This document shows positions 38,272 through 62,134 of a DNA stretch of 64,000 nt, piece by piece. Both the position numbers and the translations under genes were made by a program. Numbering within the stretch: position 1 is the first letter of the stretch; each line of letters starts with the position of its first letter. The notes beneath the pieces are model-generated. The model had not been told where the DNA came from. It saw only the letters and a list, made by a program, of their open reading frames with translations, and did no database searches. Source of the DNA: Begonia masoniana (lineage: Eukaryota > Streptophyta > Magnoliopsida > Cucurbitales > Begoniaceae); NCBI GenBank assembly GCA_022432975.1, contig CM039508.1, positions 19,991,779 through 20,055,778 on the forward strand, written 5' to 3'.

Positions 38272-38275
38272 GATT

Positions 38276-38286: not shown

Positions 38287-38394
38287 TTATACATAATAGT
38301 TTTAACTGGTTATGCAGTTTAGTAACTATGTTTAGAATGCCTCTTATATTGCCTTGATGGTAAATGTTTTTCTGATTAATATATGATTTGCTAT

Positions 38395-39310: not shown

Positions 39311-39802
39311 ATCCTTACACTCAACAACGGGGTCACATGAGTCCTCCTTCATATATAAGACTAAATTAGCAAGTACTAAGACAATTTTGGAGGAAATGTC
39401 TTATAAATTTTCAATGAATAAAATGTATGTTGATTTTCTTCATGCAATGGTACATATTTTATATGTTTTATGTTTTAAATGCTTTTATTAAAAAAAATGA
39501 TTTTAAACAGAACATCCTAATTTAGGATACCAAGTTAAAGAAGTATATTCCATTAATTCAAAATGATCTATGCATGTGAAAGGTGAATGCCAATGAGAGC
39601 ATCCATTCGATGTTCGATTCCTTCTCACTTTGGGATCCTCTAGTCGTCGGGGTTCGGTTGGTGGAATCGGGTCTTGACAGATTTGGTATCAGAGTTATAC
39701 ATAATAGTTTTAACTGGTTATGCAGTTTAGTAAATATGTTTAGAATGCCTCTTATATTGCCTTGATGGGGAATGTTTTTCTGATTAATATATGATTTGTT
39801 GT

Positions 39803-40920: not shown

Positions 40921-43772
40921 GAGCAACACATTCATTTGTGCCAGCCTCTATTGTGTATGCATTGATATTGAAAATAGTGTTATTACCATATGCTTTGGAT
41001 GTGGAATCACTGTTGGGTGGAAATGTTGCTGTAGATAAAAAATATGTAAATCTTGTGTAGTGTGGATTAAAGACTATGAGTTAGTGGTAGACCTTATAGT
41101 TGTGGAACTTGATTTGTAACACCCGGGACTTTTCTCTAACATACGTAGCCTTAGATTAGGTCATGTTATGATAGTTTAATCGTAATCCTAGGGTTATGTT
41201 AAGTATAAAAGTGAGAGAGTGAAAGTTGGAAGGTATTTGGTGAGAAACTTAAAAGTTGGAGTCATTTAGTGATGGTTATTGTTGAATTTAATGTAAAGGA
41301 AATAAAGTGAAGGAAAAGAGTGGAGGAGGAAACCTTCAGGTAGGAAGAGATGGAAAAGTGTGAGGGGGAGGTTGATAAATTATAAAGTTTGTGGTTAAAA
41401 ATTAAAATAGGAAAAAGTGGAGAATTAAATGTTGCAGGGTTTAGGATAAAAAGACAACTTTGTGTCTTCTTCTCCACTCTTCTCCCTCGATATTTCTTCA
41501 GAACCTCAAGGCCTCCATTTTGGATTTCAGCTCCTTCTTGGTAAAGATTAGCAAGGTTTTTGTGGTAAGTTGGTAAAAGCTCGGTTGTAATGGGTTTTTT
41601 TTTTTTTTTTGTGGTTTAGTGGTGTTATGAATGAGTTTTGATGAAGTTTGGGAAACCCTAAAGTGAGGGCACGAGATTTTGATTGCCCTTTGCTGGTTTT
41701 CCTTCCTACTTTTGATGATTTTGAACTATAGATAGATTAGTTGAGATTATTTAGGTAGTTAGATGTGGGAAGGTGGTGAAAAACTGGTTTTGAATCAACA
41801 TGGCCGCCCGGTTCTGTGTCTGCATATTGTATCGGCCATGGTGGTATGTGTTGCTAAAATTGGTTTGATTACCAGTGGATAGTGAGACGTGTGTAGGAGG
41901 TTTACGGAATGGAGGGGTGGATTGTTGAAATCTGATAAATAAACAAAGTCAAGTTTGCTTTAAATCAACTTAATGATAAGACAGATAAGTGGTGGGATCG
42001 GATTAAGGTATCCCTAGGTGGCCAATTTTGTTGGGAACAATTTGAAAATGTCTTCTTGGAGAGATTCTTTCCCAACTATATTAGAGAAGCAAAAGTTAAA
42101 GAATTCTGGGAGCTGGTTCAAAAGACATGAGTGTTTTGGACTATCAAACAAAGTTTGAGGAGTTATCAAAGTATGCAGGGGATTTTATTCTCAATGAAGC
42201 CACTAAAGCCCAAAGGTTCGAGCAAGGCCTTAGATCGAGTATTTCTAATAGACTCGTAGCTTTAAAACTTGAGTCACATTCATATATGGTGGAGAGAGCC
42301 ATGCTAATTGAGCAAAAACTTGGGGTGAACAAGAATGAATGGGAATCAAGAAGAAAAACAAAGGGAAAGAATCAAAAATAGTAAGTGGAGAAGATCAAAA
42401 GTTCAAAAAGTCAAGATTTACTCCACCTCAATCTCAAACTCAAACCTCATATCAAGGTAAATCAACTAAAAGTGAAGGTGACAATTCACAAACAAATGAT
42501 ACATGGAATAAAACGTATTATTATTATGGTGAAGTGAGTCATTAAGAAGAAATTGTATGAAATGGAAGGCTGAAAATCCTTACACTCAACGAGAGGGTCA
42601 CATGAGTCCTCCTTCATATATAATACCAAATTCGCAAGTACCTAGACAATTTGGAGGAAATGTTTCACAAGTTGCTAGTTCACAACCAAAAGTACATGCC
42701 TTTGGTGCTTTTGGTGAACAAACTGATAATACTATAATTGAAGGCACTTTCTTACTTTACAATTTTGTTTGATTCCGGAGCAACACATTCATTTGTGCCA
42801 GCCTCTATTGTGTATGCATTGATATTGAAAATAGTGTTATTACCATATGATTTGGATGTGGAATCACTGTTGGGTGGAAATGTTGCTGTAGATAAAAAAT
42901 ATGTAAATCTTGTGTAGTGTGGATTAAAGACTATGAGTTAGTGGTAGACCTTATAGTTGTGGAACTTGATTTGTAACACCCGGGACTTTTCTCTAACATA
43001 CGTAGCCTTAGATTAGGTCATGTTATGATAGTTTAATCGTAATCCTAGGGTTATGTTAAGTATAAAAGTGAGAGAGTGAAAGTTGGAAGGTATTTGGTGA
43101 GAAACTTAAAAGTTGGAGTCATTTAGTGATGGTTATTGTTGAATTTAATGTAAAGGAAATAAAGTGAAGGAAAAGAGTGGAGGAGGAAACCTTCAGGTAG
43201 GAAGAGATGGAAAAGTGTGAGGGGGAGGTTGATAAATTATAAAGTTTGTGGTTAAAAATTAAAATAGGAAAAAGTGGAGAATTAAATGTTGCAGGGTTTA
43301 GGATAAAAAGACAATTTTGTGTCTTCTTCTCCACTCTTCTCCCTCGATATTTCTTCAGAACCTCAAGGCCTCCATTTTGGAATTTCAAGCTCCTTCTTGG
43401 TAAAGATTAGCAAGGTTTTTGTGGTGAGTTGTAATGGGTTTTGTTTTTTTTTTTTTTTTTTGTGTTTTAGTGGTGTTATGAATGAGTTTTGATGAAGTTT
43501 GGGAAACCCTAAAGGTGAGGCACGAGATTTTGATTTCCTTTGCTGGTTTTCTTCCTACTTTTGATGATTTGAACTATAGATAGATTAGTTGAGATTATTT
43601 AGGTAGTTAGATGTGGAAGTTGGTGAAAAACTGGTTTTGAATCAACATGTCGCCGGTTCTGTTTCTGCATAATTGTATCGGCCATGTTGTATGGTTGCTA
43701 AAATGGTTTGATTCAGTGGATAGTAGACGTGTAGAGGTTTACGGAATGGGGTGGATTGTTGAAATCTGATAA
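40087..43772 (+). repeat. Tandem duplication, period about 1857 bp, spanning the left LTR A junction
   Basis: 40087-41943 is repeated at 41944-43772. Each unit holds the gag 3' half, the protease start and the first about 800 bp of solo LTR A, beginning TGTAACACCCGGG at 41115 and 42972. The units are almost identical except for the last 400 bp of unit 1 (41520-41943), which carries many extra single bases relative to unit 2. The join at 41940 is abrupt. Confidence 0.92.
41944..42780 (+). pseudogene. Gypsy gag copy 3, 5'-truncated
   Basis: Third gag segment, starting inside the gag domain (KVKFALNQLNDKTDKWWD) because the duplicated unit begins there. It continues to HAFGAFGEQTDNTIIEGTF. A one-base deletion near 42378 shifts the frame relative to copy 2; otherwise it is nearly the same sequence. 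Confidence 0.8.
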
Positions 43773-45029
43773 AAAACGAGTAAGTTATAGCCGATTGAAG
43801 TTTGAACACTAAAAATGTGGGAATTTCGGGTTTTAGGGTTATAAACTTTAGAGTTAGTTTAAATTGTTGTTAGATTTACTTTAGGCATTCCTTAGAATTC
43901 CTAGAATGTTACTAAGTGAATTTCCCTATATTTGTTAGGTTGACGAGCGAGTATTTGAGTTTGACGAAGTGAACAAATACGTGCAGCGTAACAGGTAAGT
44001 AGTGAAGTGTGTGTGTTTGCCTTCGGGCCTACACCATGGAACGGTATTGTTGGTTGTTGGTTTGTTTTGAGTTGGGCATTGTGTGACATGCATCATTGTT
44101 TTTGAAACACAAAAAACGAGTTTTGTGCATGGTTTGAAATGTGAGCATGAAATGTAAAAAGAGAAGAAGAAACGAAATGTGGTCTCGAGTGGAGTCGCCA
44201 AGTCGCGTTAGGGTGCTAGGGTAGCATTTGCGAGGGGCTCTACGAGAGACGTATCGCTGAAAATACGTAAGTGTCGTGAGTATGAACGCCTCGTCGTTGA
44301 GGTACAAGTGAAAAAACTAGAGGGTTTTATGATCGATGTAAGAGGAGATCGTGTTTGGTTGTCCAATGGGCGGGGCTCGGATGTGAGCTGTCCGATCTTG
44401 CTCTGCTGAGTCAAGGTGTGGCCGTCTAATGAGCGGGGCTCGGATGCGTGCCTACTTGATTCACACCGTAAAGTGAAAGATTAATGAAACGAAAACGAAA
44501 CGAGAACAACAGAGCGAGTAGAAACTGCATGTGTTAGGAGTTGAGTGTGCATTGTGTTTTTACATTCGTTATTCCCTACTTGCTAAGCATTAGACTTACA
44601 TTTTGTGTTCTGTGGTGTAGGTGACGACGAGATACCTGGTGAGCTTTTTTAGGGAGGCCATAACTAGGATGCAGTCGGCGACGTACATGGCTTACCGGTG
44701 CAGGTATTTGTCGGGGCGTCGTGACCATTGAGTTGCTGGGAGGTGGGGTAGTAGGAAATTTGTTGGGATTTTGATAACGTACGTGATGTTGGTTTTATAA
44801 ACTTTTTTGGTGTGTACTTTGAATGTGTTATATAAAACATTGGGTTTTTTTTTATTTTGGTTTTTAGTGGTTTTTATAGCTTTTATGTTTTTGTTTATGT
44901 GTGCGAGTTGGGTTTAGGGGTTTTAATGTTTCTAGAAGTTGAAAATATTGGAAGATGAGTTGGGAGAGAGTTTTAGGTGAAATGTTGATGAAGTGAAGAA
45001 AATTAGAAAATGGGTAATCGGTCGAAGTT

Positions 45030-47156
45030 TGTAACACCCGGTTATATCGAACCAGTTCTCAATTCTTTTTAAATTAATAGCACACTTTAAGTGACAATAA
45101 TAATGGTAGGGTTAATGGATGACTAGGCAAGGGCATATGGGTAATTGGAAATTTAAAAGTGGATAACGTATTTAAGGAGAGAGGTTTGGGATTAATGCAC
45201 TGTAGCCGCCACTTTTCTGTCTATCATTCCTCTTTCGGCCTTCAGCTCTCCAGCAGAACCCTTTTGGCGATTCTCTTGCTTGATTCTCTTTCAATCTAGG
45301 TAAGTTTTCCTCGTTTTTCTTGTATTTTAGCAGTTAGGTAACTGAGGGAGTACAATGTGAGAAATTTCGAGGATGCTATGATTGAGAGTAGATTCGGGTT
45401 TTGGAGATAAATAGGAATGCACGGGTAGCAGGGTTTCAAACTGGTTTCTTCAAACTTCCGATTGATTCTTGGTGAAGTTTAGTGAAGGTTTGATTAATGT
45501 ACTGTTATGACCTTAGGTGAGCGAGCTTCTAAAGTAGCTTACAGCCGAGCAATCTCCAGAAGACCAGATAAGTTAAGTATGCTTGTGCCTTCGGGCCTGC
45601 ATCACAAAACAGTAGGATTTATGTGTGCTTGAATGTGTTTGTAAGTCATGTATCATATTTTTGAAAGTATGCGAAAATGAATTTACATGAAATGACATGG
45701 TAAGAAATGAATAGACCGTAACAGTTGTTAAGGGAACTAATCCGCCCCTTAATCGAGAGAGAGAATGTATGACTTTGGGAGAAGTGATTCCAAATCCCAA
45801 TTTTACAAGGGGATCTGAACAGTTTGTTAAGGGAACTAATCTGCCCCTTAATCGAGAGAGATGATGTATGACTTTGGGAAAGTGATCCAACTCCCAATTT
45901 CACAGGGGGATCAGATCAGAAACGAATGCATATACAACTGAGATGAGAAAGTAGAAACTGCATGTTTAGGAATTTATGTTTCAGCATTTCATTTCATTAC
46001 TGCTTTACTTACTTAGCATTAGGCTAATAGATGAGTTTCGTGGTGTAGGTGAAGAAGTGACAGCAGGTGTGTTCTTTGAGTTTGCTGAGGACTAGGCAGG
46101 TTGGAGGGGTGCATTCATGTACTGATCTGGCAACTGATGGGGCGGTTTAACTGGTGTCAGTAGATGAGAAGGTTTAGTGAACCATGATTCAATTTAAATA
46201 TATTGAGAGTTTTAATGACAGTAGTAGTTTTGATGTTTTGAATGCAATTTGAGACTTTTTCTGATAATGATACTCTGTTAGTTTTAATAGTGGTTTTTAC
46301 CAAATTTTGGAGTAGTACATGAATTTAAGTAGTTTTGAACGGTTTTAGTAAAATGCTCAAGTTCTTTTGGTAGTCGGAGTTTTCTTTGTTTAGAGTGAAA
46401 TTGTTGCTATATCGTTTTTGTTGAGTGTTTTGATCTATCGGTAGATGATGTCTATCGGCAGATGTTGAGTATTTTGATCTATCGGCAGATGATGTCTATC
46501 GGTGGATTTAGTCTATCGGTAGAAGTCGAGAATTTTGTCTATCGGTGGATGTAGTCCATCGGTGGAAGTGAGTATTAGAATTTGTCGTTTTGTGACCGGG
46601 TGATGTCGAATATTATATCTATCGGAAGATGTAGGAAGAATTTTGTCGTTTTGTAATCGGAAGATGTGTTCAGTAGAAGCCATCGGAAGATGTCTCCAGT
46701 AGAAGCCATCGGTAGATGTTTTCGACATAAGTCTTTAGTAGCCTTATCGTTTTGTAATCGGAAGATTTAGGCTGAGAGTGTTTGTCGTTTGTGAGCGGTA
46801 GACATCGTTTGCCGAATTATTACAATCGCATGGATATCACGTGGTTTGTGCGGTAAAGGTGTTTTGTCGTTTAATGACCGGTCGAGGTGTTCTGTTATGT
46901 TTGTAAGTAAAAGACTTTTGTCGTTTAGTGATCGGTCGATGTGTTCTGTTTTCTTTTCTCTTTCAACCAACTGTCTTGAATATTTTAACTATTTAATAAA
47001 TATTATTTTTATACGATGATTTTTCCGCTGCAAGTTTCAACGTTTTAAGAGTCAAATCTTGATCATTGAATGAAATTTTAAAATTTTCTCAAAAAGCCAT
47101 AGTTCGGTTCAGTATTTTGTGTAGCGAACCGGGTTCAGATAACTTAGGGCGTTACA
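45030..47156 (+). mobile_element. Solo LTR B, Gypsy (2127 bp), nested in LTR A
   Basis: Begins TGTAACACCCGG and ends TTAGGGCGTTACA, with an exact 5-bp TSD AAGTT (45025-45029 and 47157-47161). Gene-like skeleton in reduced form: donor at 45300, exon-like block 45517-45567 whose second donor is mutated to ATAAGT, UUCG tag at 45587, 18-nt block 46049-46066. A near-duplicate segment (about 45728-45800 and 45829-45905) lies in the second intron-like interval. The 3' part carries the ATCGG word array. Confidence 0.92.
46430..46970 (+). repeat. Array of CTATCGGTAGATG and TTTGTCGTTTNGTGATCGG words in LTR B
   Basis: Roughly a dozen copies of ATCGGYAGATG-like words (CTATCGGTAGATG, CTATCGGCAGATG, GCCATCGGTAGATG) followed by six longer units of the form TTTGTCGTTT, a short variable link, then CGGNNGATG. 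Unit spacing is irregular. The same two word types, inverted, make up the Copia LTR array at 16055-16645. Confidence 0.85.
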
Positions 47157-47317
47157 AAGTTGGTGTGAAGTTTATGCGGAGATGTCGACTGATTAGTACT
47201 GAAATCGGTCAAAGTTGGTGTGCTGTATTCGGTCGAAGTTGCTGTGCTGTAATCGGTCGAAGTTGGTTTGGAGATATCAACTTAGTAGAAAACGTCGACC
47301 TATTCTGTAGTAGAAAA

Positions 47318-49190
47318 CGTTGACCGATCAGTAAGATATTGTCGACCGATATTGTCGACCGAAATTCCCAGCTGTCAATTTGGCATATGCCAGTTTAGCA
47401 GATGTTGATTCGGCATATGTTAATCGGCAGGTATGTTTGTAAATTTTCTTCGGCAACAAAAAGGTTGCCGACCGATTGGCCCAAGAGTCGATCAATCGAC
47501 AGAGTGAATGGTAACCGAGTTTGATTTTTTTTTATTATTTTTGGTTTGCGAATATGATTTAATCTAATTTTTTCAGACATGTTTTGTATGTATTTTAGAC
47601 ACGTTACTCCATCCGCTTTCAAGGGTTTGAAAAACCCGAATATTTTATTGAAAATTTTATAAAAAAAAAAATTCCATTTTAAATAGTGTATTGAGTGAGC
47701 ATGTAGCGTATCGAGCCGGAATGGGTGTCGGGGGCATTACATGATTGGTTTGATGTTTTTTGGGGATGAATTGGTTATCCAAGTACAAAGCAATTATGAA
47801 TTGTTATCGAAAGAAAATACGTATGTCTTCCGCAAGGAGAAACATTTTCATTTTATGGTAAGGGAAATGCAATTAGATGCCACTTCCCTCGAACTTCTTT
47901 TAAGTTTAAAGGATGGATAGTTACCTTTTGATTGAGCCGAATATGATAACAATGTTAAATCTATTGAAGTGGTAAATGAATATATGGATGTTTTTCCAGA
48001 CAGGACTACCAAGAAGAGAGATAAAATTTGTAATTGAAGTGTATCCAGTACAAATCTGATTTCCATTGCTCCTCATCATATGACAACACTAGCTGAATTA
48101 AAAGGAATTGAAAGTACAATTAGAGAAATTAATGGAGAAAGGATTTATAAGGCCTAGCACATCTCCATGGGGTGCTTCAGTCTTGTTTGTTAAAAAGAAA
48201 TATGGTACATTAAGATATGCATTGACTATTGACAATTGAATAGAGTAATAGTAAAGAAAAAGTTGACCGATCAGTAAGATATTGTCGACCGATATTGTCG
48301 ACCGAAATTCCCAGCTGTCAATTTGGCATATGCTAGTTTAGCAGATGTTGATTCGGCATATGTTAATCGGCAGGTATGTTTGTAAATTTTCTTCGGCAAC
48401 AAAAAGGTTGCCGACCGATTGGCCCAAGAGTCGATCAATCGACAGAGTGAATGGTAACCGAGTTTGATTTTTTTTTATTATTTTTGGTTTGCGAATATGA
48501 TTTAATCTAATTTTTTCAGACATGTTTTGTATGTATTTTAGACACGTTCTCCATCCGCTTTCAAGGGTTTGAAAAACCCGAATATTTTATTGAAAATTTT
48601 ATAAAAAAAAAAATTCCATTTTAAATATGGTATTGAGTGAGCAATGTAGCGTATCGAGCCGGAATGGGTTCGGGGGCATTACATGATTGGTTTGATGTTT
48701 TTTTGGGGATGAATTGGTTATCCAAGTACAAAGCAATTATGAATTGTTATCGAAAGAAAATAACGGTATGTCTTCCGCAAGGAGAAACATTTTCATTTTA
48801 TGGTAAGGGAAATGCAATTAGATGCCACTTCCCTCGAACTTCTTTTAAGTTTAAAGGATGGATAGTTAACCTTTTGATTGAGCCGAATAATGATAACAAT
48901 GTTAAATCTATTGAAGTGGTAAATGAATATATGGATGTTTTTCCAGAAGGACTACCAAGAAGAGAGATTAAATTTGTAATTGAAGTGTATCCAGGTACAA
49001 ATCTGATTTCCATTGCTCCTCATCATATGACACTAGCTGAATTAAAGGAATTGAAAGTACAATTAGAGAAATTAATGGAGAAAGGATTTATAAGGCCTAG
49101 CACATCTCCATGGGGTGCTTCAGTCTTGTTTGTTAAAAAGAAATATGGTACATTAAGAATATGCATTGACTATTGACAATTGAATAGAGT
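47318..49190 (+). repeat. Tandem duplication, period about 941 bp, spanning the right LTR A junction
   Basis: 47318-48258 recurs at 48259-49190. Each unit holds the LTR A 3' end (ATTACA at 47741 and 48683) and the first part of host Gypsy pol. Unit 1 has numerous single-base gains and losses that break pol, whereas unit 2 reads cleanly. The join near 48258 falls in AAAAAGT followed by TGACCGATC. Confidence 0.92.
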
Positions 49191-50813: not shown

Positions 50814-51041
50814 TGTAACACTCGAGATTTGTTTAAGAAAGAAAAATTGGAGAGAAAATAAAATGATAAGGTAATTGTTTAATAATAGGTTATTTTAATT
50901 AGTTTAAAGAAAAAGTGAAATTTCTAATTTAAGTTCGGGTCCTAGTGAAATTAAGCCGGGGGTTATGATTTAAGAACGAGAGGTAACGAAATTTGAAATG
51001 GTTGAAAGTACGGAAGGGCAAAATGGTTTTATTGTTATTAA

Positions 51042-51043
<2 letters not shown>

Positions 51044-51084
<41 letters not shown>
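51044..51084 (+). repeat. (ATT)n microsatellite
   Basis: About thirteen uninterrupted ATT units in the 5' part of solo LTR C. Confidence 0.9.
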
Positions 51085-52084
51085 TTAATTTTATAAAATA
51101 AAATCAACAGAATAGCCGAAGCTATTCTGTCGAGCCCGACGCCGAGAGAGCGAACAGGGGTGAGGGGAGGGAGAGTCGCCGATCCACCGCCGCGATTTCC
51201 GGCGTTCTCCGGCCAGCTCCGACCAGACGACGGCGGCGAATCAAGGGCTAGCATCTCCGGCTGTCTTCGCGCACGAACCAACCCGGTAAGTGTGTTTTTT
51301 TGCCCTGTTTTCGGTTTGCTTGAAGCTGAGAGCGACGAGCTTGTTTTGGCTCCAATCGCTAGTCATTTTTAGCTGCCCTTAGCGTCAGATTTCCGAGCTC
51401 AATGCCGGCAATGATTGCCGAGCAACAGGGAGCTCGGATTGAGCCAAAAGCTGAGAACCCTATTTTATGAGTTTCGGGTTTCTTGTGTGAATTCTTGATT
51501 TTTCGTTAGATTATGTTAATTGGATGTTAGGGGAGTTGATTGGTGAGGAATTGGTTGATAATTGATGAAAAAGTAGAAAAGGGGAAATTCCGGGTTAAGG
51601 GGCAGTTCGGATTTTTGGATATTTGACCTAGCTACGGTCATTCGTTGTAAAATTCATTTTGGCACGTTAAAATAGGTTATTAGGGGAGTACGTGGCCGCT
51701 GGAATCGTTCGATTCCGTTAACCGACGCAGAAGTTATGCGCGTTTGAGTTTCGGGTCAGTTTTTACCGAACCCAAATTAGTGGCCCGTTTAATTAGGTTT
51801 TAGTTGGATTATACTAGAAATAGTAGTTTGAGAGTGATTGGTGAATGTGGGCTTAATTTGAATGAAGTTTGAATATTTGTAGTTGGAGTTAGCTTAAATA
51901 TTCTTTAGAAGTGAATTGTGATGCTTAAGTGACTTTTGTTAATGTGATAGGTTACCGAGTGGGGAAATTTACATAGCCAAAGCGAGTAAGTGCGGTGCAA
52001 GAGTTCAGGTAAGTAGAGGACGTTTGTGTTTTGCCTTCGGGCCTACACCACGGAACGGTAGGATTTATTTTATGATAATTGTTG

Positions 52085-52345
52085 TTTGGTTGTCTTCTTC
52101 GTTGGTTAAGCATTGTTGGTTGTTTATTGTTTGTTAGTTGGTTGTCTTTTCTGTTCGTTAAGCATTGTTGGTTGTTTATTGTTTGTTGGTTGGTTGTCTT
52201 CTCCGTTCGTTAAGCATTGTTGGTTGTTTATTGTTTGTTGGTTGGTTGTCTTCTCCGTTGGTTAAGCATTGTTGGTTGTTTGTCCTTTGTTGGCTGGTTG
52301 TCTTCTTCGTTGGTTAAACATTGTTTGTTGTTTGTTGTTTGGTTG
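52085..52345 (+). repeat. 52-bp tandem repeat, about five units
   Basis: The anchor GTTAAGCATTG recurs every 52 bp (about 52104, 52156, 52208, 52260, and a weaker GTTAAACATTG at 52312). Units are GT-rich (GTTGGTTGTTTATTG). It sits in the second intron-like interval of LTR C, upstream of the 46-bp array. Confidence 0.85.
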
Positions 52346-52549
52346 CTTTGCTTCACTCTGAGTTATGGTACGGTAGGGCTTTGCTTGTCGTTTGATTGTT
52401 ATGTTTCGGTTTAATGTTGGTTAAGCTTCGGTTGAATGTTGGTTAAGCATTTGGGTGTGGCATTTCAGTGTTTTCGAACTACGAACCCTCTGAGTTTCTA
52501 GCATGGTAGTGGGTGGTGAGCATGAAAGGAAATGTGAGTAGAGTGAGAC

Positions 52550-53370
52550 AGTCGCCCAGTCGCGTTAGGGTAGCACCTGCGAGGGACTCCAGGGGACTTG
52601 CCGAGTCGCGTTAGGGTGGTACCTGCGAGGGACTATTGTTGAGTTGCCCAGTCGTGTTAGGGTAGCATCTGCGAGGGACTCCAGGGGAGTTGCCTAGTCG
52701 CGTTAGGGTGGAACCTGCGAGGGACTATTGTTGAGTCGCCCAGTCGCGTTAGGGTAGCACCTGCGAGGGACTCCAGGGGAGTTGCCTAGTCGCGTTAGGG
52801 TGGTACCTGCGAGGGACTATTGTTGAGTCGCCCAGTCGCGTTAGGGTAGCACCTGCGAGGGACTCCAGGGGAGTTGCCTAGTCGCGTTAGGGTGGTACCT
52901 GCGAGGGACTATTGTTGAGTCGCCCAGTCGCGTTAGGGTAGCACCTGCGAGGGACTCCAGGGGAGTTGCCTAGTCGCGTTAGGGTGGTACCTGCGAGGGA
53001 CTATTGCTGAGTCGCCCAGTCGCGTTAGGGTAGCACCTGCGAGGGACTCCAGGGGAGTTGCCTAGTCGCGTTAGGGTGGTACCTGCGAGGGACTATTGCT
53101 GAGTCGCCCAGTCGCGTTAGGGTAGCACCTGCGAGGGACTCCAGGGGAGTTGCCTAGTCGCGTTAGGGTGGTACGTGCGAGGGACTATTGTTGAGTCGCC
53201 CAGTCGCGTTAGGGTAGCACCTGCGAGGGACTCCAGGGGAGTTGCCTAGTCGCGCTTGGGTGGTACCTGCGAGGGACTATTGTTGAGTCGCCCAGTCGCG
53301 TTAGGGTAGCACCTGCGAGGGACTCCAAGGGAGTTGCCCAGTCGCGTTAAGGTGGTACCTGCGAGGGACT
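52550..53370 (+). repeat. 46/92-bp tandem array, about 18 units
   Basis: Alternating 46-bp half-units form a 92-bp higher-order unit. Both contain GTCGCGTTAGGGT and CCTGCGAGGGACT; one continues CCAGGGGAGTTGCC, the other ATTGTTGAGTCGCCC. About nine 92-bp periods, with rare substitutions (for example 52611, 53172, 53257). Homologous single-copy sequence with GTCGCGTTAGGGT exists in LTR A (about 44204), so the array expanded from an ordinary LTR segment. Confidence 0.95.
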
Positions 53371-54187
53371 AGTAGGGTGGTGGTTTGGCATCTTTCGATG
53401 CAGGCAGTCTTATTCGTGTTGTGTTGCGTTGTTGTGTTAAAGCTGCGTGAGAGTTGTGGTGCATTGTGCATGTTTAACTTTATTTATCCCCTACTTGCTA
53501 AGCGTAAGCTTACGCGTGTGTGTTCTGTGGTGTAGGTAATGATGCGGTTACAGGTGAGCTAAGCGAGTGAGACAGGACTTGGCAGCAGTCGGAGGAGTAC
53601 GGGGCATGCCGGTGCGGGCAGTTGTCGGGGCGACTCCACCATGGTCTTCGGGAGATGTGGGACTTTGTATTTTGATAGCGTATTGTAGATGTCTGTTGTT
53701 GTATATAGTTAAGTTAAGGGTGATGTGTCGCCCTATATTGTGGACTTTCTTTACTTAGGAATGCTCGTATTTAGTTTCCTCTTTACTATTATTTGGAGGT
53801 TTTTATATGTTGGATTGTTGAGTGGATAGATGGTTAGGAATATTCTGGATTGGTTGAGGATTGGGTTTATGCTGGTACCTAGCATTTTGGAGGCGCCATT
53901 TTCAGGCGTTACTTTGCCGAAATTTTCGGGAAGAACGCCGTGGTGCTGAAAGGTTAGGGGTAAGGGAATTGGTGAGTCTAGGCAGTTAGGTATGACGTAA
54001 GAGAGTTTCGAGAGACTTAGCTTTGAGAGAGCTTGAGGAGGTTTTGTTTTAAATTTTGTTGTAAATTTTGTTGTGTCCGTTTTATTTGTTATGTTTTGGG
54101 AATTAGAAAATTATATTAAATTATGTTTAATGTGGGATGAGTTAGCAAAGTAGCGCTCCGAGCGAGGGTGGGTTCGGGGGCGTTACA

Positions 54188-55200
54188 GGTAATGAATGAT
54201 CGGCTTACCAAATCAAGTCACATTTTACCCACACGTAGTACTCATTCGATAGATCAGATAAGTAAAATGTATTTAAGGGAAATTGTTAGACTTTATGGTG
54301 TGCCTATTTTCATAGTTTTCTGATCAAGATCCAAGATTCACTTAGAAATTTTGGCAAGGTTTACAAAAGGCTATGGATACAATGTTGGATCTTAGTACTG
54401 CTTATCACCCACAAACTGATGGCCAATTTGAGAGGACAATCCAAGTTTTGGAAGATATATTATGAGCATGTATTATGGATTTTCAAGAAAGTTGGAAAGA
54501 TTATATTCATCTTATGGAATTCACCTATAACAATAGTTACCAAGTAAGTATAGGTATGACACCATTTGAAATACTTTATGGGAGACCTTGTAGATTTCCA
54601 TTGTGTTGAACCGAGATAGGTGAGAAGGTCTTATTGGGACCAGACTTGGTACATGGAAGTAGCGAAAAGATTAAACTTATTAGGCAACGATTGGAGACTG
54701 CTTAAAGCCGTCAAAAGAGCTATGTTGATAAACAAAGAAAACCTCTTGAATTTAATAAAGGTGATCATATGTTTGTTAAAGTAAGGTCGTATCGAAGCTT
54801 GAGTAAATTTGGTAAAAGTAGTAAATTAGCTCCAAGATTTGTAGGACCTTTCTAGATACTACAAAAGGTAGGTTCCGTAGCCTATAGAATTGCATTACCT
54901 CCTCAATTGGTTGGAATATATGACGTCTTTCGTATTTCAATGATAAATAAATATAAACCTGATCCCTCACATGTTTTGGATTGGAAAAAATTGTAATTTC
55001 AACCAGATATGACAATAGTGGAAGAACCAGTTACTATACTTGATTCACAAGATAAAGTGCTAAGAAATAAAGTGATTCCTATTGTTAAAGTTTTGTGGAA
55101 GAGAAGGGGATCGAATAAGCTACATGGGAACTAGAACATGAGATTAGATAAAAGTATCCTAAACTTTTTAAGAACTATATTAGAGATAAATTTCGGGACG
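54188..55200 (+). pseudogene. Gypsy integrase core and C-terminal region
   Basis: Resumes after LTR C with MNDRLTKSSHILPTRSTHS, then YLREIVRLYGVPIFIV, a frameshifted STAYHPQTDGQFERTIQ block with the catalytic Glu region, YGRPCRFPLC, and a C-terminal part with FNKGDHMFVKVRSYR, KLAPRFVGPF and VFRISMINKYKPDPSHVLDW. Stops and frameshifts are scattered. The tail includes RNKVIPIVKVLWKRRG, common at the pol end of plant Gypsy elements; no chromodomain recognised. Confidence 0.88.
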
Positions 55201-55224
55201 AAATTTTATTAACGGAGAAAAAAA

Positions 55225-55637
55225 TATAATGGTTTGAACCTTCAATATTCTATTGTCAATAATGTATTGTGGATATTTATTATGGATGATGTATAAATAT
55301 AAGTTATGAAAGTTGTATTGAAGAAATGGTACAAAGTCCTTGTGAATGCCAAAAATGAAATTGTTTTATAAGAACAGACTTGATAGTAAGTGTAATAACT
55401 TTTGTTGTGATAAATAGATTTCTATGTCATTTTACAGTCTTAAACTAGACATGCAGAGAAAAAGAATGCCTATGGAATGAAAGAAGTTGGATGTATGTAG
55501 CAAAAATTATTTACTTTTTAATATGATGAATGCAGTTTACGTTTTAATCTGCACTGTTTTGATAAATGACTTTAAACCTCATCATAGAGTGAGAATTTGC
55601 AAAAACTTTAAGGAAAAATATTTTCAACACTTTGTAG
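55225..55637 (+). repeat. Gypsy 3' LTR, truncated
   Basis: Begins TATAATGGTTTGAACC (the expected TG changed to TA) after the purine run GGAGAAAAAAA and follows the 5' LTR for about 410 bp, then homology stops near 55637. The rest of this LTR and the TSD are missing. Confidence 0.78.
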
Positions 55638-56071
55638 CATGTATCTATGCAATAGTTTTGGACAACCAATGGAGTTAGGATACGTGGCAATCAGCATATG
55701 TTGTGTAAGCTATTTGCTTAAGTAATTAATTAAGTTAATTAAGTATGATTAAGACTAATTAATCATACTTAAACATAAGTATTCATAGGATTTTTTAGAA
55801 TATCCATAAAAGGAAGGACAATTTTGTACAAAGGCATGAAGAAGTTAGGTTAAAAAGGGAAGTTTATCCAAGAACCATCTAGAAATAAGGGACAAAGGCT
55901 GAAGAGACAAAGTCAATTTCGTGGGATTCAGATTGAGAAGAGATAAAAAGGAGAAAGAACATAGAAAAAGTAGAATTTTGGACTGTTCGTCAAACGAAAA
56001 TTACTCAACTTGGGAAGTGATTCTATAGAACTAAAAATCAGTTCATTAGGTAAAAAAAATTTGGGAGAAGA
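55638..56071. other. Spacer between the two Gypsy elements
   Basis: No coding region. It contains a palindromic AT stretch (TTAATTAAGTATGATTAAG and its inverse, about 55730-55770) and a purine-rich segment at 55900-55970 that looks like a promoter-leader of an unidentified LTR fragment. The last five bases, GAAGA, are the expected left TSD of the next element. Confidence 0.4.
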
Positions 56072-57379
56072 TGTAACACCCGGGAATTTCCGTTAACGTA
56101 CATAGCCTAGTTATGGAATGTCGTGAGAGTTTAATGTTAGTCTTAATGTTATCTTAGCAAGTTGAATTAGAAAGTGCAATTGGAAGAGGAATTTGAGAGA
56201 AAATCCTAGGGTTAAAGTAGAGTAGAAGTTTGTGTCGAGTTGAATTAATTTAAAGGTAATTAAAAGTGATAAAATGGGAGGGAAATAGAAGCTTTCACGT
56301 TGGTTTAAGTGTGAAGGGAGAAAATGAGGCTATTTTATAAAAAACTGAAATTTGTGGTAAAAGTTTAAAAGGTGAAAAATATTTTTTTTATAAAAGGAGA
56401 AAATTTAAGGGTTGAAAGACAATTGTATTGTCTTCTTCCCCTTCCTCTGTAACACCCGAGAATTTCATTGTATGGATTTTCTCATATGCTTAGTAATGAA
56501 AGTTAAAAATATTATTTGCTATTAGTTAAAGATTTTGTTTTAGAAGTCAAGCAAATAAATTAGAAGAGAATTTATAATTTTCATGGAATGAATGAGTTAA
56601 CTATTGATAGCAAATGATGATTCTTTCACGTTAAATGAGGAAAAAAAAAGAAAACAAAAGAAAACAAAGGAAAGAATGAAAGTAATATGAAGTTGTTATG
56701 GCATTTGATAAATGAAGAAAAGTGGCAGAAGAATAAAAGATAAATGGACGAGTCAAATGGATGGTTTTGTTGAAAAGTCAACAAAACCAAGTGGAAAGTG
56801 GAGTGTAGTCGTTGCCTTGAAATTTAATGTGTAAAATTACATGTAGTAAGCAAAAGCTACACGTAGCTTGGTGGTGTAAAGTGAAGGACAAGAGAAATTT
56901 AACCCTTGGTTTAAAAGTGGCCACATCATCACTTTTTATTGTTATTACTTTTTCCTTAAGACTTTTAAGTGATAAAACTAGCCATAATCTTCTCCTTCCA
57001 CGAAAAAGTGCTTTCCTCCATTGTTGCATCAAAGTTTCTACGCCAAGCTCCTTCCTTTTGGGATTTAAGGTAAGAAAAAGTTAGGTTATGATTTATGCTT
57101 GTAAAGGATAAATAATTATGAGCTTTAGTGTTTTTGAATGAGAATTTGAAGGTGGGTTTTTAGATGCAAGAAGCTACGATTTCTTGCTGAAATCTTCCTC
57201 TATTTTGTTGCTCCATCATGTTTTAAGACTAGATTATGACCATGGATTGTATGGATTAAAGAAATTTCATGTTGGATTATTATTTGGAATTGGGTTGTGA
57301 AAAATTGACAAAAAAACAGGGGGCTTCAGGTTTGACCATTTTCGACCAAGCTAATTGTCCTGGTTTGTTAAACGGATTT

Positions 57380-58050
57380 TTCTAGGAGAAACTAGACACT
57401 TTGAAGTTTCTATAACATCTTGAATCATCAAATTCGGACCTATATTCGATTTGTTACGAATTTTTGAAATTGATTGATGTTTGATGTAAAACTAGAAATT
57501 TGAGAAATTGATAAAACAGGGCAGGTCTAGGTTTCATTTATTTATCCAAATTGTTTATATTAAAGTGATAAATGGATTTCAACAGTTGAAAATGGACATC
57601 CTAAGGTTTATGTAGAATTTTGAATCGATGAGTTCGGATATGTATACGATTTATGGTGAATTTTTGAAGTAGTTAAAGTTTAATGAAATCTGGAATTTTT
57701 GAAATAACAGAACAGTTTGGTTTTTGGCAATTTCTGTTATGCTATTGGAGTGGGTCATAAAATAGATTTGAATATTAGAAACTAGACATTTTAAGGTTTA
57801 AATAGCATCTTGAATCATTGAATTTGGATGAGTATACAAAAAGTTATGAATTTTCAAAGTTTAGCCTAAATTGTAAAACGAAATTCGGGGCGGGTTACTC
57901 TTCCGATGCTTTTCACCCTCCTTTCGATTTTAGCTTGTCAAATTGTTTTAATGGGGTAAAATAGACATTTTTCTGAATCTATGGGCTTTGAAATCAAAGC
58001 GTTTCGATATGTATGGAATTAGCTATGGATTTTTAAAGTTGGTATAATGT
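57380..58050 (+). repeat. Diverged module repeated four times, period about 190-200 bp
   Basis: Four segments (from about 57386, 57590, 57782 and 57962) each contain a GACATTTTAAGG-like start, then CATCTTGAATC, then TTCGGATATGTATACGA and TATGAATTTTTGAAG-like sequence. LTRs A and D have one such module (around GTTTACGGAATG ... GAGTAAGTTATGGCC). Confidence 0.65.
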
Positions 58051-58784
58051 ATTGTGATACAATCCGAATTTTTATTAGTAAAGGAAAACCACGTGGATTT
58101 GGATCCTTAACTTGAGTTATGTATGATGCCACGTTTTTGAAATTTTGGAATAGATAGTTGTGTAAATTATTATAATGGACTTTGGCATTGGTTTTCTTTG
58201 GATAGTATGAATATGTTGGATTGGTTATAGTTATGATCAAAGGTTTTGTTGTGATAAATGTGAATATTGATTTTTAGTTGACATGTTGTAGGTTTATCAA
58301 ATCCTAAAAAAAATTGATCAAGTGCTATAATTATGCTAAGGACGCGAGGTAAGTCTTCGTGATTTGTTTGGTCGTCTTGGCCTACACAATAAGAATGAAC
58401 GTTAAATTGAGGAATTGGAGATATATTGCGTTTGAGTAATTAGAACGAGTAGTTAGTTTTAGGTTTGGTTAGGTTGTTAATTGTTTAGTATATTGTTTGT
58501 ATGATTCTATTTCGTTCATGGCATAATATTGTTCACGCATCATTGTTTTCAAAAAGGGCATGAAAAAGAATTTTTATGCATGTTTTTACAAAACGAAAAG
58601 GTAAACGAATGTAATAAAGGTCACGTCGGTGGCGGTGGTTCAGACATGGCTGTCAGGTGAAGCATGTTTTCCCCCCTTAGATACGAGGGACTATCCAATC
58701 GATGGATGTGCCGCTCCTATCTAGCGAGAGTGAAGCCCCGGTGACATAAATGAAATGATTAGCGAAAAGATAGGATGCATGATT

Positions 58785-58888
58785 TATGAACTGTACATGC
58801 ATAGCATTCACGTACATTCACGTAGATTTACTGAGCTATGAACTGTACATGCATAGCATTCACGTACATTCACGTAGATTTACTGAGC
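58785..58888 (+). repeat. Exact 52-bp direct duplication
   Basis: Two adjacent copies starting TATGAACTGTACATGC, each with ACGTACATTCACGTAG, in the second intron-like interval of LTR E just before its acceptor. Confidence 0.92.
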
Positions 58889-59444
58889 CTCTAGCTCACA
58901 TTTTTATTTTTATGGTGTAGGTGAATTTGAGACAGGTGATGAAGACGTCCCTCTGCTTCAAATTATGAGCACATTGAAGAACAATGCTCGTGGGGGTGTG
59001 CTGGCGTAGTCGGTGCTTAATTTGACCCGTGGGGACGAAGGTAAACGTTTTGGGAAAAATTGATGGATAGAAAGATAGGAAAAACTGTATAATTAAATCA
59101 TTTTAGGATGCTTGGATCTGGATAGATATTGTATAGTGTTTTTGGTAGATTGATACTATTTTGTAGTGTTTTGGATGTTTTCAAACAGGAGAAAATGTTA
59201 AGTTTTTAAACGGAACCACGCGGTTCGTTTTTATAGAATTTGGTTATATTTTAAATGTGTTTTGAATCAGTAATGGGGGATTGATAGAGAGTGAATTGTA
59301 TGCGAATGGTAGGTTGTTATGAAATGTTAAGAGTGGATTTGATGAGAGAAAAATGGTGAAGTGTTTAGGCGTGTTTATGCAGGAAAATAGAAAGGAGAAA
59401 GGAAGAGAGGCAGCTCTCTGGAAAAAGTGGATTCCAGAGAGCTT

Positions 59445-59650
59445 GCCAATCGATCGCCATGGAGGGCGATCGATCGGCCCTCTTTGGTCATGCTCTGGAA
59501 GAAATTCCAGAGCGTGTGCCGATCGTTCGCCTGGTGAAGGGAACGATCGGCCATGGTTGATCGCCGAAGGGCGATCGATCGCCTGCATGAGGGGCGACGA
59601 TCGCCCCTCAGTTTTTTTCACTGGCGATCGATCACCTGTTTTGGGCATTC
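59445..59650 (+). repeat. CGATCGATCGCC word cluster in LTR E
   Basis: Nine or more CGATCG-containing words (GCGATCGATCGG, CGATCGCC, CGATCGGCC) in both orientations within 200 bp, including the near palindrome AATCGATCGCCATGGAGG and its surroundings. It lies in the 3' part of the LTR, like the arrays of A, B and D. Confidence 0.8.
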
Positions 59651-61554
59651 GATCGCCCCTGTATTTTGTGGGACAATTGTCCTTTTTGCCCCCTTGAGTT
59701 GTGGCCGATGGTTTTATTTGTTTTAATTGTTTTATGGTTTTAATCTAAATTGCCACATCCTCCTTCGTAGGGCAGCCATTTCTAGGGTTCTTCTCCTTCT
59801 CTTCATCAACTTTTGCAAAGTTTTAAGGTAAGTTTTTATGGGGTTTTGATGGTAATGGATTTAGGTGGTGGTTTTTGATGTTTTTAAGGTATTTTTGGGA
59901 GATTTGGTTAGGGTTTGGGAAACCATAATTTAGGGGTCAGAAATTTTGAATACTTTTGCTAGTTTTCTTCCCAAATTTGATGGTTTAAACTTAGAATATG
60001 TTGGTTTAGGTTATTTTTAGAGTTAGATTGGAGAATAGGTGAAAGTTGTGCAAAAATTGAATTTTGTGTTATGTGCACCAATTCTATTTCTGAGATTTCG
60101 AATTGGCCAACTTATTTGGTTACTTCAATGGATTGTATACGTGTAGAGGTTTACGGAATGAGGTGGAACGTCTCAATCCGTTGAAAAATGAGTAAGTTAT
60201 GGCCAATTGAAGTTAGGTGATAGAAATTGTGGGAATTTCGGGTTGAGGGTTAAACTTTAAGTTGTTTTGTTAGTTTTAGTTTAGGTAATTCCTTAGAATC
60301 TTTTAAATTGGTACTAAGTGAATTTCCTTATAATTGTTAGGTTGACAAGTGAGTAGTTGAGCGTGGACGAAGTGAATAATTACGTACGGAGTATCCAGGT
60401 AAGTAGTGGATTGCATTTATTTTGTCTTCAGGCCTACATCACAAAACGATAGAGTTTAATGTTTGCTTGTTGTATGGTTGTGTTTGAGTATTGTGTGATT
60501 GTCATGCATCATGTTTTAAGCTACGAAAAGAAAACGAGTTTTGTGCATAATTTGAAATGTAAGAAAGAAAAGTAAAAGATAAAAAAATAAAAAATAAGAT
60601 AAGATGTGGTTTCGAGTAGAGTCACCAGGTTGCGCAAGTTGCCGGAGAGGTACTTGTGACTTGCCGGAGAGGCGTTTGTGAGAGACTCTACAAGAAATAT
60701 ATTATTGAAAATACGTAAGTGTCATGAGTATGAACGCCTCGTCGTTAACGTGCAAGTGGAGCACTAGAGGGTTCTATGATCGATGTGGGAGGAGATCGTG
60801 TGCGGCCGTCCAATGGGGAGGATCCAGATGTGTGCTACCTGATCTTGCTCTGTGGGTTAAGGTGTGGCCGTCCAATGGGCTCAGACGTGTGCCTACTTGA
60901 TTCACGTGTAAAAGTGGAAGATTAATGAAACAAAAACGAAATGAAAACAACAGAGAGAGTAGAAACTGCATGTGTTAGGTGTTCGTGCATTGTATGCATT
61001 TACATTCATTATTCCCTACTTGCTAAACGTAAGCTTACGTTTTGTGTTCTGTGGTGTAGATGACGACGTATATACAGGTGAGCTTGATGAGGAAACCCAA
61101 GACTAGGATGCAATCGTTGACGCACGGGGTACGCCGGTGCAGGCAGTTGTCGGGGCGCTTCGACCATGGATTGCGGGGTTGAGAGGGGTGAATATTTATT
61201 TTGGGTTGTATGTAGGTATTTTGTTAAAATTGTTTAGGTGTGAATGTTGGGGTTTATCAACTTGATGGATGTCATTTTGGATATGTTTTATAAATAGTTT
61301 GATTTTCAGGTTTATGGTTTTCGAAACTTTAGCTGTTGTTTTTTTTTAAGCAAACAACGTCGGGTTTCACTTGTTTCTACATTTCTGATGATGTTTTGGA
61401 GTCGGTTTTTCAAAAATTTTACATGTCAAGGAGTCGGAGATGTGGGGAAAAGTTTGGGGTAAATTGTAGGCAATTTGGAGTGTGGTTTAAAGAAAAATAG
61501 AAAAATGAGGAAGAAGGGCGCTAGTGGCCGAGAGAGGGCGCGAAGCGCGCGGAT

Positions 61555-61700
61555 TGGGCGCGCACTGTAGGCGCGCGCAGCAACCAACGCCGATCGATCA
61601 ACGCGCAGCGCTGATCGATCGGCACATTCTACTGTCCCTCAATCGTGCACCCGAGAGGGTGACGATCGATCAGTGCCTGGCGCCGATCGATCGGCACCAG
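61555..61700 (+). repeat. CGCCGATCGATCGG word cluster in LTR D
   Basis: Four CGATCGATC words, alternating ACGCCGATCGATCAACG and GCGCTGATCGATCGGC types, then CGCGCGCG-rich sequence to 61745. Strikingly CpG-rich for this window. Same relative position in the LTR as the arrays of A, B and E. Confidence 0.8.
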
Positions 61701-61978
61701 CACGCGCGGGGTTCCGCGCGCGGTGCGCGCAGCTGGCGCACGCGTGGCATGCATGCCAACTTTTATTTTATTTTTTTAAATTTTCCTATTTCTACTTTGT
61801 TTTAACCCGATCTTTTCCGACACGTTTGACACGTATTTTGTGCACGTTTTTCAACAAATTTTGAGGGTTCAAAAAACCTGAAAATCGAGTCAAAAATTAT
61901 TTTAAACATCGTTTTAATTGGGGTATTAGTTAGCAAAGTAGCGCACCGAGCCGGAGTGGGTTTGGAGGCGTTACAAGT

Positions 61979-61990
61979 TGGTATCAGAGT
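61979..61990 (+). other. Primer-binding site, second Gypsy element
   Basis: TGGTATCAGAGT, three bases after the LTR end; complementary to the initiator Met-tRNA 3' end. Confidence 0.9.
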
Positions 61991-62134
61991 AAAGTGGTCG
62001 AGTCATTCAAAGAATTACCCGACAATGCCGGCCGCCATGCAACGTGTTTCACCGACTGTAAGTATTTTTCTTCTTTAGTTAATTTATATATCTAAGATTA
62101 AATTATTTTAATCTTGTACATGATTAGAATTAAA

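What the first reader, a model, noticed from the sequence alone, without database searches (positions are those of the whole stretch)
42972..61975. Five Gypsy LTRs share a spliced-gene-like skeleton with an 18-nt microexon-like block
Seen directly: LTRs A, B, C, D and E differ greatly in length and sequence, yet each has in order (i) a donor-like GTAAG/GTAAAG (43400, 45300, 51296, 59828, 57070); (ii) an acceptor-like TTAG, ATAG or GTAG followed by an exon-like block of 56, 51, 58, 58 and 57 nt (43939, 45517, 51951, 60341, 58292); (iii) a consensus donor GTAAGT at the end of that block (ATAAGT in B); (iv) an acceptor GGTGTAG (ending 44620, 46048, 53535, 61059, 58920); (v) an 18-nt block (15 in E) followed by GTGAGC or GTG. 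The intron-like intervals vary from about 0.2 to 1.5 kb. In A, D and C a CTTGCTAA branch-point-like word precedes acceptor (iv). No reading frame is conserved. Inference: LTR transcripts are spliced, so the LTR encodes a small structured or non-coding gene-like unit kept through family divergence.
Basis: partly seen in the sequence, partly recalled or inferred. Interest (0 to 1): 0.86.

Follow-up and report, generated by a model that had tools for sequence, protein, structure and literature searches.

The report
Retrotransposon LTRs with clamped hidden introns
Five plant retrotransposon repeats that otherwise look different keep the same promoter and splice-site layout, and the end of the second intron is predicted to be clamped by RNA pairing, which could let the element divide its RNA between protein-making and copying.

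Summary
In detail: all five LTRs carry the skeleton near the stated coordinates (C's first donor is 51286, not 51296). All 6 matches on the + strand lie in these LTRs, none on the minus strand, and at most 2 of 1000 shuffles per LTR match. Evidence for spliceosomal signals: 7 of 7 donors scoring 9 or more in the LTR pieces are skeleton donors, and 4 control LTR regions have none. Exons 1+2 hold 1 ATG against about 10.5 expected, while introns are at expectation. CTNAY lies 21-23 nt before the last acceptor in 5 of 5.

New: a box 28-34 nt after donor 2 pairs with the acceptor GGTGTAG in 5 of 5 LTRs, across 422-1463 nt, burying the AG. LTR pieces from contaminant contigs repeat the exon-1/donor layout (2 of 2 long enough) and the branch-point/acceptor layout (1 of 2).

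Best reading: these LTRs encode a multi-intron 5' leader. Splicing gives an ATG-poor gag mRNA; the clamp keeps some RNA unspliced as genome. No transcript data were available, so splicing itself is inferred. New variant of a known kind.

The parts
42972..47741 (+). LTR A (solo LTR, TSD TGATT), interrupted by LTR B
45030..47156 (+). LTR B (solo LTR, TSD AAGTT), nested in A
50814..54187 (+). LTR C (solo LTR, TSD GGTAA)
56072..61975 (+). LTR D (5' LTR; PBS at 61979), interrupted by LTR E
56448..59757 (+). LTR E (solo LTR, TSD TCCTC), inserted in D's putative exon 1; 3' end less certain
43330..43399 (+). A putative exon 1 (start estimated), weak donor at 43400 (alternative 43424)
43939..43994 (+). 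A exon 2 (56 nt), donor CAG|GTAAGT at 43995 (rank 1 of 203)
44028..44043 (+). A clamp helix, 5' strand
44595..44599 (+). A branch-point-like CTTAC (branch A 22 nt before the AG's G)
44606..44621 (+). A clamp helix, 3' strand, covering acceptor GGTGTAG|G (AG ends 44620)
44621..44638 (+). A short exon-like block (18 nt), donor CTG|GTGAGC at 44639
45205..45299 (+). B putative exon 1, donor TAG|GTAAGT at 45300 (rank 1 of 177)
45517..45567 (+). B exon 2 (51 nt), donor position mutated (ATAAGT)
45596..45611 (+). B clamp helix, 5' strand
46034..46049 (+). B clamp helix, 3' strand, over acceptor ending 46048
46049..46066 (+). B 18-nt block, donor CAG|GTGTGT at 46067 (rank 2 of 177)
51115..51285 (+). 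C putative exon 1, donor CCG|GTAAGT at 51286 (rank 2 of 337)
51951..52008 (+). C exon 2 (58 nt), donor CAG|GTAAGT at 52009 (rank 1 of 337)
52042..52057 (+). C clamp helix, 5' strand
53521..53536 (+). C clamp helix, 3' strand, over acceptor ending 53535
53536..53553 (+). C 18-nt block, donor CAG|GTGAGC at 53554 (rank 4 of 337)
59763..59827 (+). D putative exon 1, 3' piece (5' piece 56425-56447, split by E), donor AAG|GTAAGT at 59828 (rank 2 of 191)
60341..60398 (+). D exon 2 (58 nt), donor CAG|GTAAGT at 60399 (rank 1 of 191)
60433..60448 (+). D clamp helix, 5' strand
61045..61060 (+). D clamp helix, 3' strand, over acceptor ending 61059
61060..61077 (+). D 18-nt block, donor CAG|GTGAGC at 61078 (rank 3 of 191)
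56990..57069 (+). E putative exon 1, donor AAG|GTAAGA at 57070 (rank 2 of 219)
58292..58348 (+). E exon 2 (57 nt), donor GAG|GTAAGT at 58349 (rank 1 of 219)
58381..58396 (+). E clamp helix, 5' strand
58906..58921 (+). E clamp helix, 3' strand, over acceptor ending 58920
58921..58935 (+). E 15-nt block, donor CAG|GTGATG at 58936 (rank 10 of 219)
62058..62127 (+). Candidate final acceptors (62078, 62127) and a donor-like ACT|GTAAGT (62058) between D's PBS and the gag start; speculative

Best explanation
Each LTR carries a Pol II promoter and a spliced 5' leader of the retrotransposon's own RNA: short ATG-free exon 1, intron 1, a 51-58 nt exon 2, intron 2, a 15-18 nt exon, and probably a last intron that removes the rest of the LTR and the primer-binding site up to near gag. 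Spliced RNA would be a translatable gag mRNA with almost no upstream AUGs and, if the last intron is used, no primer site. Unspliced RNA would be the genome, which must keep the introns because they are part of the LTR. The acceptor of intron 2 is suboptimal and is predicted to be locked in a helix of up to 16 pairs with a box just after donor 2, so that a share of transcripts stays unspliced. Shown by computation: the conserved signals, their strength, the ATG depletion and the pairing potential. Inferred: that splicing happens, that the last intron exists, and that the helix restrains (rather than helps) splicing.
For: Skeleton in 5 of 5 LTRs; 0-2 of 1000 shuffles per LTR; 6 of 6 + strand matches in the window lie in these LTRs. 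By a plant splice-site matrix recalled from memory, the top donor is a skeleton donor in 5 of 5 LTR pieces; 7 of 7 donors scoring 9 or more are skeleton donors, against 6 in 42.9 kb of background and none in 4 control LTR regions. Exons 1+2: 1 ATG in 784 nt against 10.5 expected (P 0.0002), intron 1 79 against 79.3, intron 2 83 against 79.2; stable when the estimated exon-1 start is moved by -40 to +20 nt (1-2 ATG against 9.8-15.5). Intron 1 is T-rich (38% T, 10% C), exon 1 C-rich, exon 2 purine-rich. CTNAY at 22, 21, 23, 22 and 22 nt before the acceptor. Acceptor block most conserved. The acceptor is the best partner of the box among all other LTR windows in 5 of 5; the helix is in the minimum-energy fold of 5 of 5; 93.8% of 80 cells paired, slid controls at most 52.9%; searched from the acceptor, the box is again the best upstream partner in 5 of 5, reached by 0, 0, 0, 0.03 and 0 of 60 shuffles, while the intron-1 acceptor shows nothing (fractions 0.20-0.88 of 40 shuffles). 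Other elements: L017 and L021 have an ATG-free stretch after a TATA word ending in the strongest donor of the LTR piece (ranks 1 of 77 and 1 of 114); L022 has a stem TGAGC..GCTCA, CTCAC 24 nt before an acceptor, and a 13-nt block followed by GTAAGT.
Against: No RNA evidence. B's donor 2 lacks GT; A's donor 1 is weak. Acceptor ranks are only moderate (1 to 32 of 141-265). A and D are close relatives. Block of 18: 3 ATGs against 1.9 expected, so no depletion there, and the following 400 nt are not depleted either (59 against 50.6). Covariation is modest: dealing the 3' strands among the LTRs kept as many pairs in 24 of 120 permutations, and two-sided changes were matched by 51 of 500 shuffles. 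The helix is only 0.44-0.59 probable in D (inner 10 pairs). Overall folding of intron 2 is not unusual (z -2.3 to +0.9). L022's short-block donor ranks only 15 of 98 and its best upstream partner for the acceptor is matched by 0.08 of 60 shuffles; L018 shows neither hairpin nor well-placed branch point. Acceptors near gag are weak or inconsistent. The splice matrix is recalled, not from a call.
Confidence: 0.68

Rival explanations
1. The conserved blocks are splice sites, but of a stand-alone non-coding RNA gene carried in the LTR: promoter, three exons and a poly(A) site inside the LTR, so that solo LTRs are small spliced genes.
For: Promoter, exons and the last block lie all inside the LTR and would be complete in solo LTRs; conservation continues about 80 nt past the short block (second-best window 0.536).
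Against: Exon sequence is poorly conserved while length and signals are; the ATG depletion fits a translated leader; a strong donor follows the short block in 4 of 5 (ranks 2-6), which points further downstream. No poly(A) evidence was sought or found.
Confidence: 0.12
2. The helix and blocks are conserved for another RNA step (packaging, dimerisation, reverse transcription or ribosome shunting over the looped region, as in the leaders of plant pararetroviruses), and the splice-site look of GGTGTAG is incidental.
For: GGTGTAG is conserved beyond what an acceptor needs and is fully paired; pararetrovirus leaders use one structure for several jobs (PMC5902531, passages).
Against: Donor strength, ATG depletion and branch-point spacing are explained only by splicing; no short ORF ends just before the helix (0 ATG between donor 2 and box in 4 of 5); intron 2 as a whole is not unusually structured.
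Confidence: 0.12
3. The pairing helps splicing instead of restraining it: it loops out the long intron 2 and brings donor 2 to within about 33 nt of the acceptor.
For: Box lies 28-34 nt from donor 2 in all five while intron 2 varies from 481 to 1527 nt; long-range pairing is known to bridge distant splice sites (PMC11802352, passages).
Against: The AG itself is inside the helix, next to its end, which should hinder its recognition.
Confidence: 0.3
4. Chance or mere shared ancestry: relics of one ancestral LTR without function.
For: All five descend from related elements; A and D 73% identical.
Against: Mean identity over the whole LTR alignment is 0.20 while the acceptor block is at 0.71; shuffles and control LTRs do not show it.
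Confidence: 0.05

Closest known systems
Maize CRM4-derived transcripts (chromovirus LTR/UTR cDNAs; PMC3648361)
   Same: A plant chromovirus LTR with a TATA box gives cDNAs that splice out most of the UTR, one with an extra splice in the LTR (passages).
   Different: Those are transcripts of CRM-derived tandem repeats; no conserved multi-exon layout or helix is described in the passages seen.
Spliced plant LTR elements Ogre, EVADE, BARE1
   Same: Partial splicing divides RNA between roles; BARE uses distinct pools for translation and replication (PMC3735527 passages; review PMC12786077 passages).
   Different: Their introns lie in the coding region (Ogre between gag-prot and RT, PMC6317226 passages; BARE after gag), not in the LTR. 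The review says plant LTR elements generally lack introns apart from exceptions such as these.
Plant pararetrovirus leaders (CaMV, RTBV; PMC5902531)
   Same: Structured, ATG-rich leader with a splice donor; splicing regulates how much unspliced RNA is left (passages).
   Different: One donor in the leader joined to a distal acceptor; ribosome shunting around a hairpin; no LTR.
Retroviruses with a splice donor inside the LTR R region (foamy and deltaretroviruses; recalled)
   Same: Donor in the transcribed part of the LTR; unspliced RNA is the genome.
   Different: No internal exons and acceptors inside the LTR; recalled, the passages seen do not state the donor's place.
Long-range RNA pairing in splicing control (e.g. 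Dscam1; PMC11802352)
   Same: Distant pairing bridges or hides splice signals (passages).
   Different: Host genes; not in a transposon LTR.

Membership tests
Ty3/gypsy LTR retrotransposon | gag, CCHC knuckle and retropepsin in the element behind LTR D | tested here: met
   Retrotrans_gag, zf-CCHC, RVP_2 and Ty3_capsid in the 440-aa open frame 62273-63592
Ty3/gypsy LTR retrotransposon | TG...CA ends, 5-bp target duplication, tRNA primer site | tested here: met
   TGTAAC starts in 5 of 5; GTTACA/ATTACA ends in A-D, CCACA in E; TSDs in A, B, C, E; TGGTATCAGAG at 61979 after D; that this word is the initiator-Met primer site is recalled
Tekay/Del chromovirus clade | chromodomain after integrase | not testable with these tools
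   D's pol runs off the window. Relatives L017, L019, L021 found with D's RT piece have a chromodomain-like end (Pfam Chromo E 6.8e-6, 6.5e-5, 5.8e-4; only the first passes the curated cut-off)
Tekay/Del chromovirus clade | position in an RT tree | not tested
   only 86 aa of RT in the window; no tree built
Spliced plant LTR retrotransposons (Ogre/EVADE/BARE type) | spliced transcripts observed | not testable with these tools
   no transcript data
Spliced plant LTR retrotransposons (Ogre/EVADE/BARE type) | intron in the gag-pol coding region | tested here: not met
   the signals studied lie inside the LTR, before the primer site; the coding region was not screened for further introns
Spliceosomal intron (U2 type) | strong GT donors, AG acceptors, CTNAY branch point at fitting distance, U-rich intron | tested here: met
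   exceptions: B donor 2 lacks GT, A donor 1 weak, acceptors moderate, intron 2 not U-rich (31% T)
Rfam RNA families | match to a curated family | tested here: not met
   window 42900-62200: one match at E 0.16, below its gathering score, to a bacterial sRNA

The most novel reading that the evidence does not exclude
An RNA switch inside a retrotransposon LTR: an intron-spanning helix locks the 3' splice site of a leader intron and, by opening or closing, sets the ratio of translatable spliced mRNA to packageable unspliced genome; kept in length-divergent LTRs because it solves the conflict between translation and replication.
Probability: 0.35. Interest if true: 0.85.

Novelty: new variant of a known kind. 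Interest (0 to 1): 0.7.

Why it matters
How plant Ty3/gypsy elements with kilobase-long, ATG-rich LTR leaders get gag translated, and how they keep translated and copied RNA apart, is largely open: the review seen says plant LTR elements generally lack introns. A conserved multi-intron leader with a predicted acceptor clamp would make that question testable with existing RNA reads. It would also mean that solo LTRs scattered through genomes carry ready-made promoters, exons and strong donors that can be spliced onto host genes.

Tried and rejected
Coding block: rejected; exon 2 lengths 56, 51, 58, 58 and 57 nt share no frame and there is almost no ATG. Known RNA family: none. Intron 2 as a large, unusually stable structured domain (packaging-signal idea): not supported, z -2.3 to +0.9 on the + strand; several minus-strand or neighbouring segments had lower z. 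Branch-point hairpin TNAGC..GCTNA: seen as the predicted fold in B, C and E, but not in A (-0.6 kcal/mol, irregular) or D (other pairing), and z between -2.5 and +0.6; kept only as suggestive. UUCG hairpin after donor 2: predicted in A, B and C, a variant in E, not in D, none with notable z. Ribosome shunt: no short ORF before the helix. Pairing at the intron-1 acceptor: none beyond chance. Relatives in viral contigs: none encode one; the 16 motif matches have no other LTR feature except scattered GTAACAC words and look like chance. Plasmids: none. Protein search: 2 proteins at E <= 1e-20 of 2539 candidates, in Primulina and Juglans, which agrees with a flowering-plant host but does not name it. 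Of 13 loci I read LTR stretches of 5 (L017, L018, L019, L021, L022); the other 8 were only scanned for motifs. L021 and L022 are 99% identical over 5.76 kb and count as one family. L019's LTR piece is 463 nt and too short to judge. Paper searches: ten; none of the listings named conserved LTR introns in Tekay-like elements; most papers were seen only as listings, and eight were searched for passages that were shown. PMC3059260 held none of the words intron, spliced, splicing or untranslated.
Full report
WHAT IS THERE. The finding's stretch holds nested Ty3/gypsy insertions. LTRs A (42972-47741, with B inside it), B (45030-47156), C (50814-54187) and E (56448-59757, inside D) look like solo LTRs with 5-bp target duplications; D (56072-61975) is the 5' LTR of an element with a primer site at 61979 and a gag/CCHC/protease frame behind it.

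IS IT MORE THAN CHANCE? The skeleton matches all five LTR pieces. It is seen in 0, 2, 2, 1 and 0 of 1000 dinucleotide shuffles of A, B, C, D3 and E, and not on the minus strand. The whole + strand has 6 matches, all in these LTRs. The LTRs are so divergent that a global alignment has a mean pairwise identity of 0.20 (gap columns counted), yet its best 40-column block (0.71) is the acceptor with its upstream hairpin-like stretch and the short block. With the close pair A-D left out, three windows exceed the best of 24 shuffled alignments (0.461): 0.694 at the acceptor, 0.536 just downstream and 0.511 about 100 nt upstream; the exon-2 window (0.422) does not.

DO THE SIGNALS LOOK LIKE REAL SPLICE SITES? 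I scored every GT and AG with a plant splice matrix recalled from memory. The strongest donor of the LTR piece is a skeleton donor in 5 of 5. Donor 2 is rank 1 in A, C, D and E; donor 1 is rank 1 in B, 2 in C, D and E, and 31 in A; the donor after the short block is rank 6, 2, 4, 3 and 10 (A to E; of 203, 177, 337, 191 and 219 GTs). Acceptors are moderate: ranks 8 and 5, 32 and 8, 9 and 2, 11 and 15, 5 and 1. All 7 donors scoring 9 or more in the 13.1 kb of LTR pieces are skeleton donors. Background (+ strand 1-42900) has 6 such donors in 42.9 kb, and the two copia LTRs and two regions of the older gypsy LTRs have none above 7.5.

Exons 1 and 2 hold 1 ATG in 784 nt against 10.5 expected from their own composition (P 0.0002); intron 1 has 79 against 79.3, intron 2 83 against 79.2, the short block 3 against 1.9, and the next 400 nt 59 against 50.6. 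The exon-1 start is my estimate from TATA-like words, which are clear in B, C and D and weak in A and E; moving it by -40 to +20 nt leaves 1-2 ATG against 9.8-15.5. In D, the 3' part of the unsplicd leader from 59763 to the gag start holds 48 ATGs, one of them in the short block and none in exons 1 and 2. A CTNAY branch-point word lies 22, 21, 23, 22 and 22 nt before acceptor 3; other YTNAY words also occur in the last 60 nt in B to E.

THE CLAMP. The conserved box just behind donor 2 (CCTACACCAC-like; 33, 28, 33, 34 and 32 nt from the donor) is complementary to the acceptor GTGGTGTAGG. Among 1994-3310 windows per LTR, no window pairs better with the box than the acceptor, in 5 of 5. Searched from the acceptor, the best upstream partner is the box in 5 of 5, at -27.3, -21.0, -29.8, -17.3 and -16.5 kcal/mol; fractions 0, 0, 0, 0.03 and 0 of 60 shuffles reach that, while for the intron-1 acceptor, as a control, 0.20-0.88 of 40 shuffles do. 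The helix is in the minimum-energy fold of all five RNAs; pair probabilities are 0.95 or more over the inner pairs in A, B and C and over most pairs in E, and 0.44-0.59 in D. Over 16 pairs 93.8% of 80 cells are standard pairs; partners slid by 1-3 columns give at most 52.9%; four pairs show two-sided changes. Covariation alone is not decisive: 24 of 120 permutations of the 3' strands keep as many pairs, and shuffles reached the paired fraction 10, the two-sided pairs 51, the two-sided cells 21, the further pair types 252 and the covariation score 19 times of 500. The strands lie 562, 422, 1463, 596 and 509 nt apart, so the pairing has survived large length changes of the loop, which in C include a 92-bp tandem array. 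The whole of intron 2 is not unusually stable.

OTHER ELEMENTS. A scan of prokaryote assemblies with an 86-aa RT piece of D's element gave 13 loci that look like eukaryotic contamination; three tested ends are chromodomain-like. L017 and L021 hold LTR starts long enough to judge: each has a TATA word (5204, 6065), an ATG-free stretch of about 110-130 nt, and then the strongest donor of the whole piece (5345, rank 1 of 77; 6224, rank 1 of 114). L022 and L018 hold LTR ends: L022 has the stem TGAGC..GCTCA, CTCAC 24 nt before an acceptor at 1166 (rank 3 of 60) and a 13-nt block followed by GTAAGT, though that donor ranks only 15 of 98; L018 shows no such layout. L021 and L022 are one family. A clamp partner in L022 is not significant (0.08 of 60 shuffles).

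HOW IT MOST LIKELY WORKS. The promoter in U3 starts RNA at exon 1. Splicing exon 1 to exon 2 to the short block, and from its donor to an acceptor near gag, would remove nearly all upstream AUGs and the primer site, giving a gag mRNA that cannot be reverse-transcribed. The last acceptor is the weakest step: D offers 62078 (score 6.26) or 62127 (2.56, 8 nt before the presumed gag ATG); in L018 the best acceptor lies 2 nt before the ATG, in L021/L022 it does not. Since LTRs are regenerated from unspliced RNA, the introns persist only if unspliced RNA is exported and copied, so splicing must be incomplete. A 3' splice site with a poor pyrimidine tract, its AG in a helix, is a natural brake. The opposite sign (looping to help a long intron) is a live rival.

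WHAT IS KNOWN. Seen as passages: a review saying plant LTR elements generally lack introns with exceptions Ogre and EVADE (PMC12786077); BARE's separate RNA pools (PMC3735527); CRM4TR cDNAs with UTR splicing and one LTR splice (PMC3648361); pararetrovirus leader splicing (PMC5902531); long-range pairing in splicing (PMC11802352). In ten paper searches I saw no description of conserved introns in Tekay-like LTRs or of this helix; the library lacks most subscription papers, so this is no proof of novelty.

Noticed in passing
37992-40806, 40085-43776, 47312-49207: Abutting direct duplications of 0.95-1.86 kb at 95-98% identity inside the older gypsy element, ending almost base to base; could be true tandem duplications or assembly artefacts.
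   Followed up: no
52550-53371: Tandem array of a 92-bp unit inside intron 2 of LTR C, apparently related to a single-copy stretch of A near 44190-44250 (the relation seen by eye).
   Followed up: no
44500-44530 and 44640-44720 (LTR A): Two further blocks (GTAGAAACTGCATG; GGTGCAGGCAGTTGTCGGGGCG-like) conserved above shuffles on either side of the acceptor, without explanation.
   Followed up: partly
44019-44031, 45586-45599, 52032-52045: GCC-TTCG-GGC tetraloop-type hairpin directly before the clamp box in A, B and C; altered in D and E.
   Followed up: partly
L017-L028: Ty3-type retrotransposon pieces of eukaryotic look inside prokaryote genome assemblies, i.e. contamination.
   Followed up: partly
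15848-17315 and 24311-25783: LTR pair of a copia-type element, 96.5% identical, with a primer-site word at 17317.
   Followed up: no
21712-22211: Perfect 58-bp-step repeat array within the same stretch.
   Followed up: no
29972-32507, minus strand: Frames that look like a type-B response regulator gene (by eye, recalled family).
   Followed up: no
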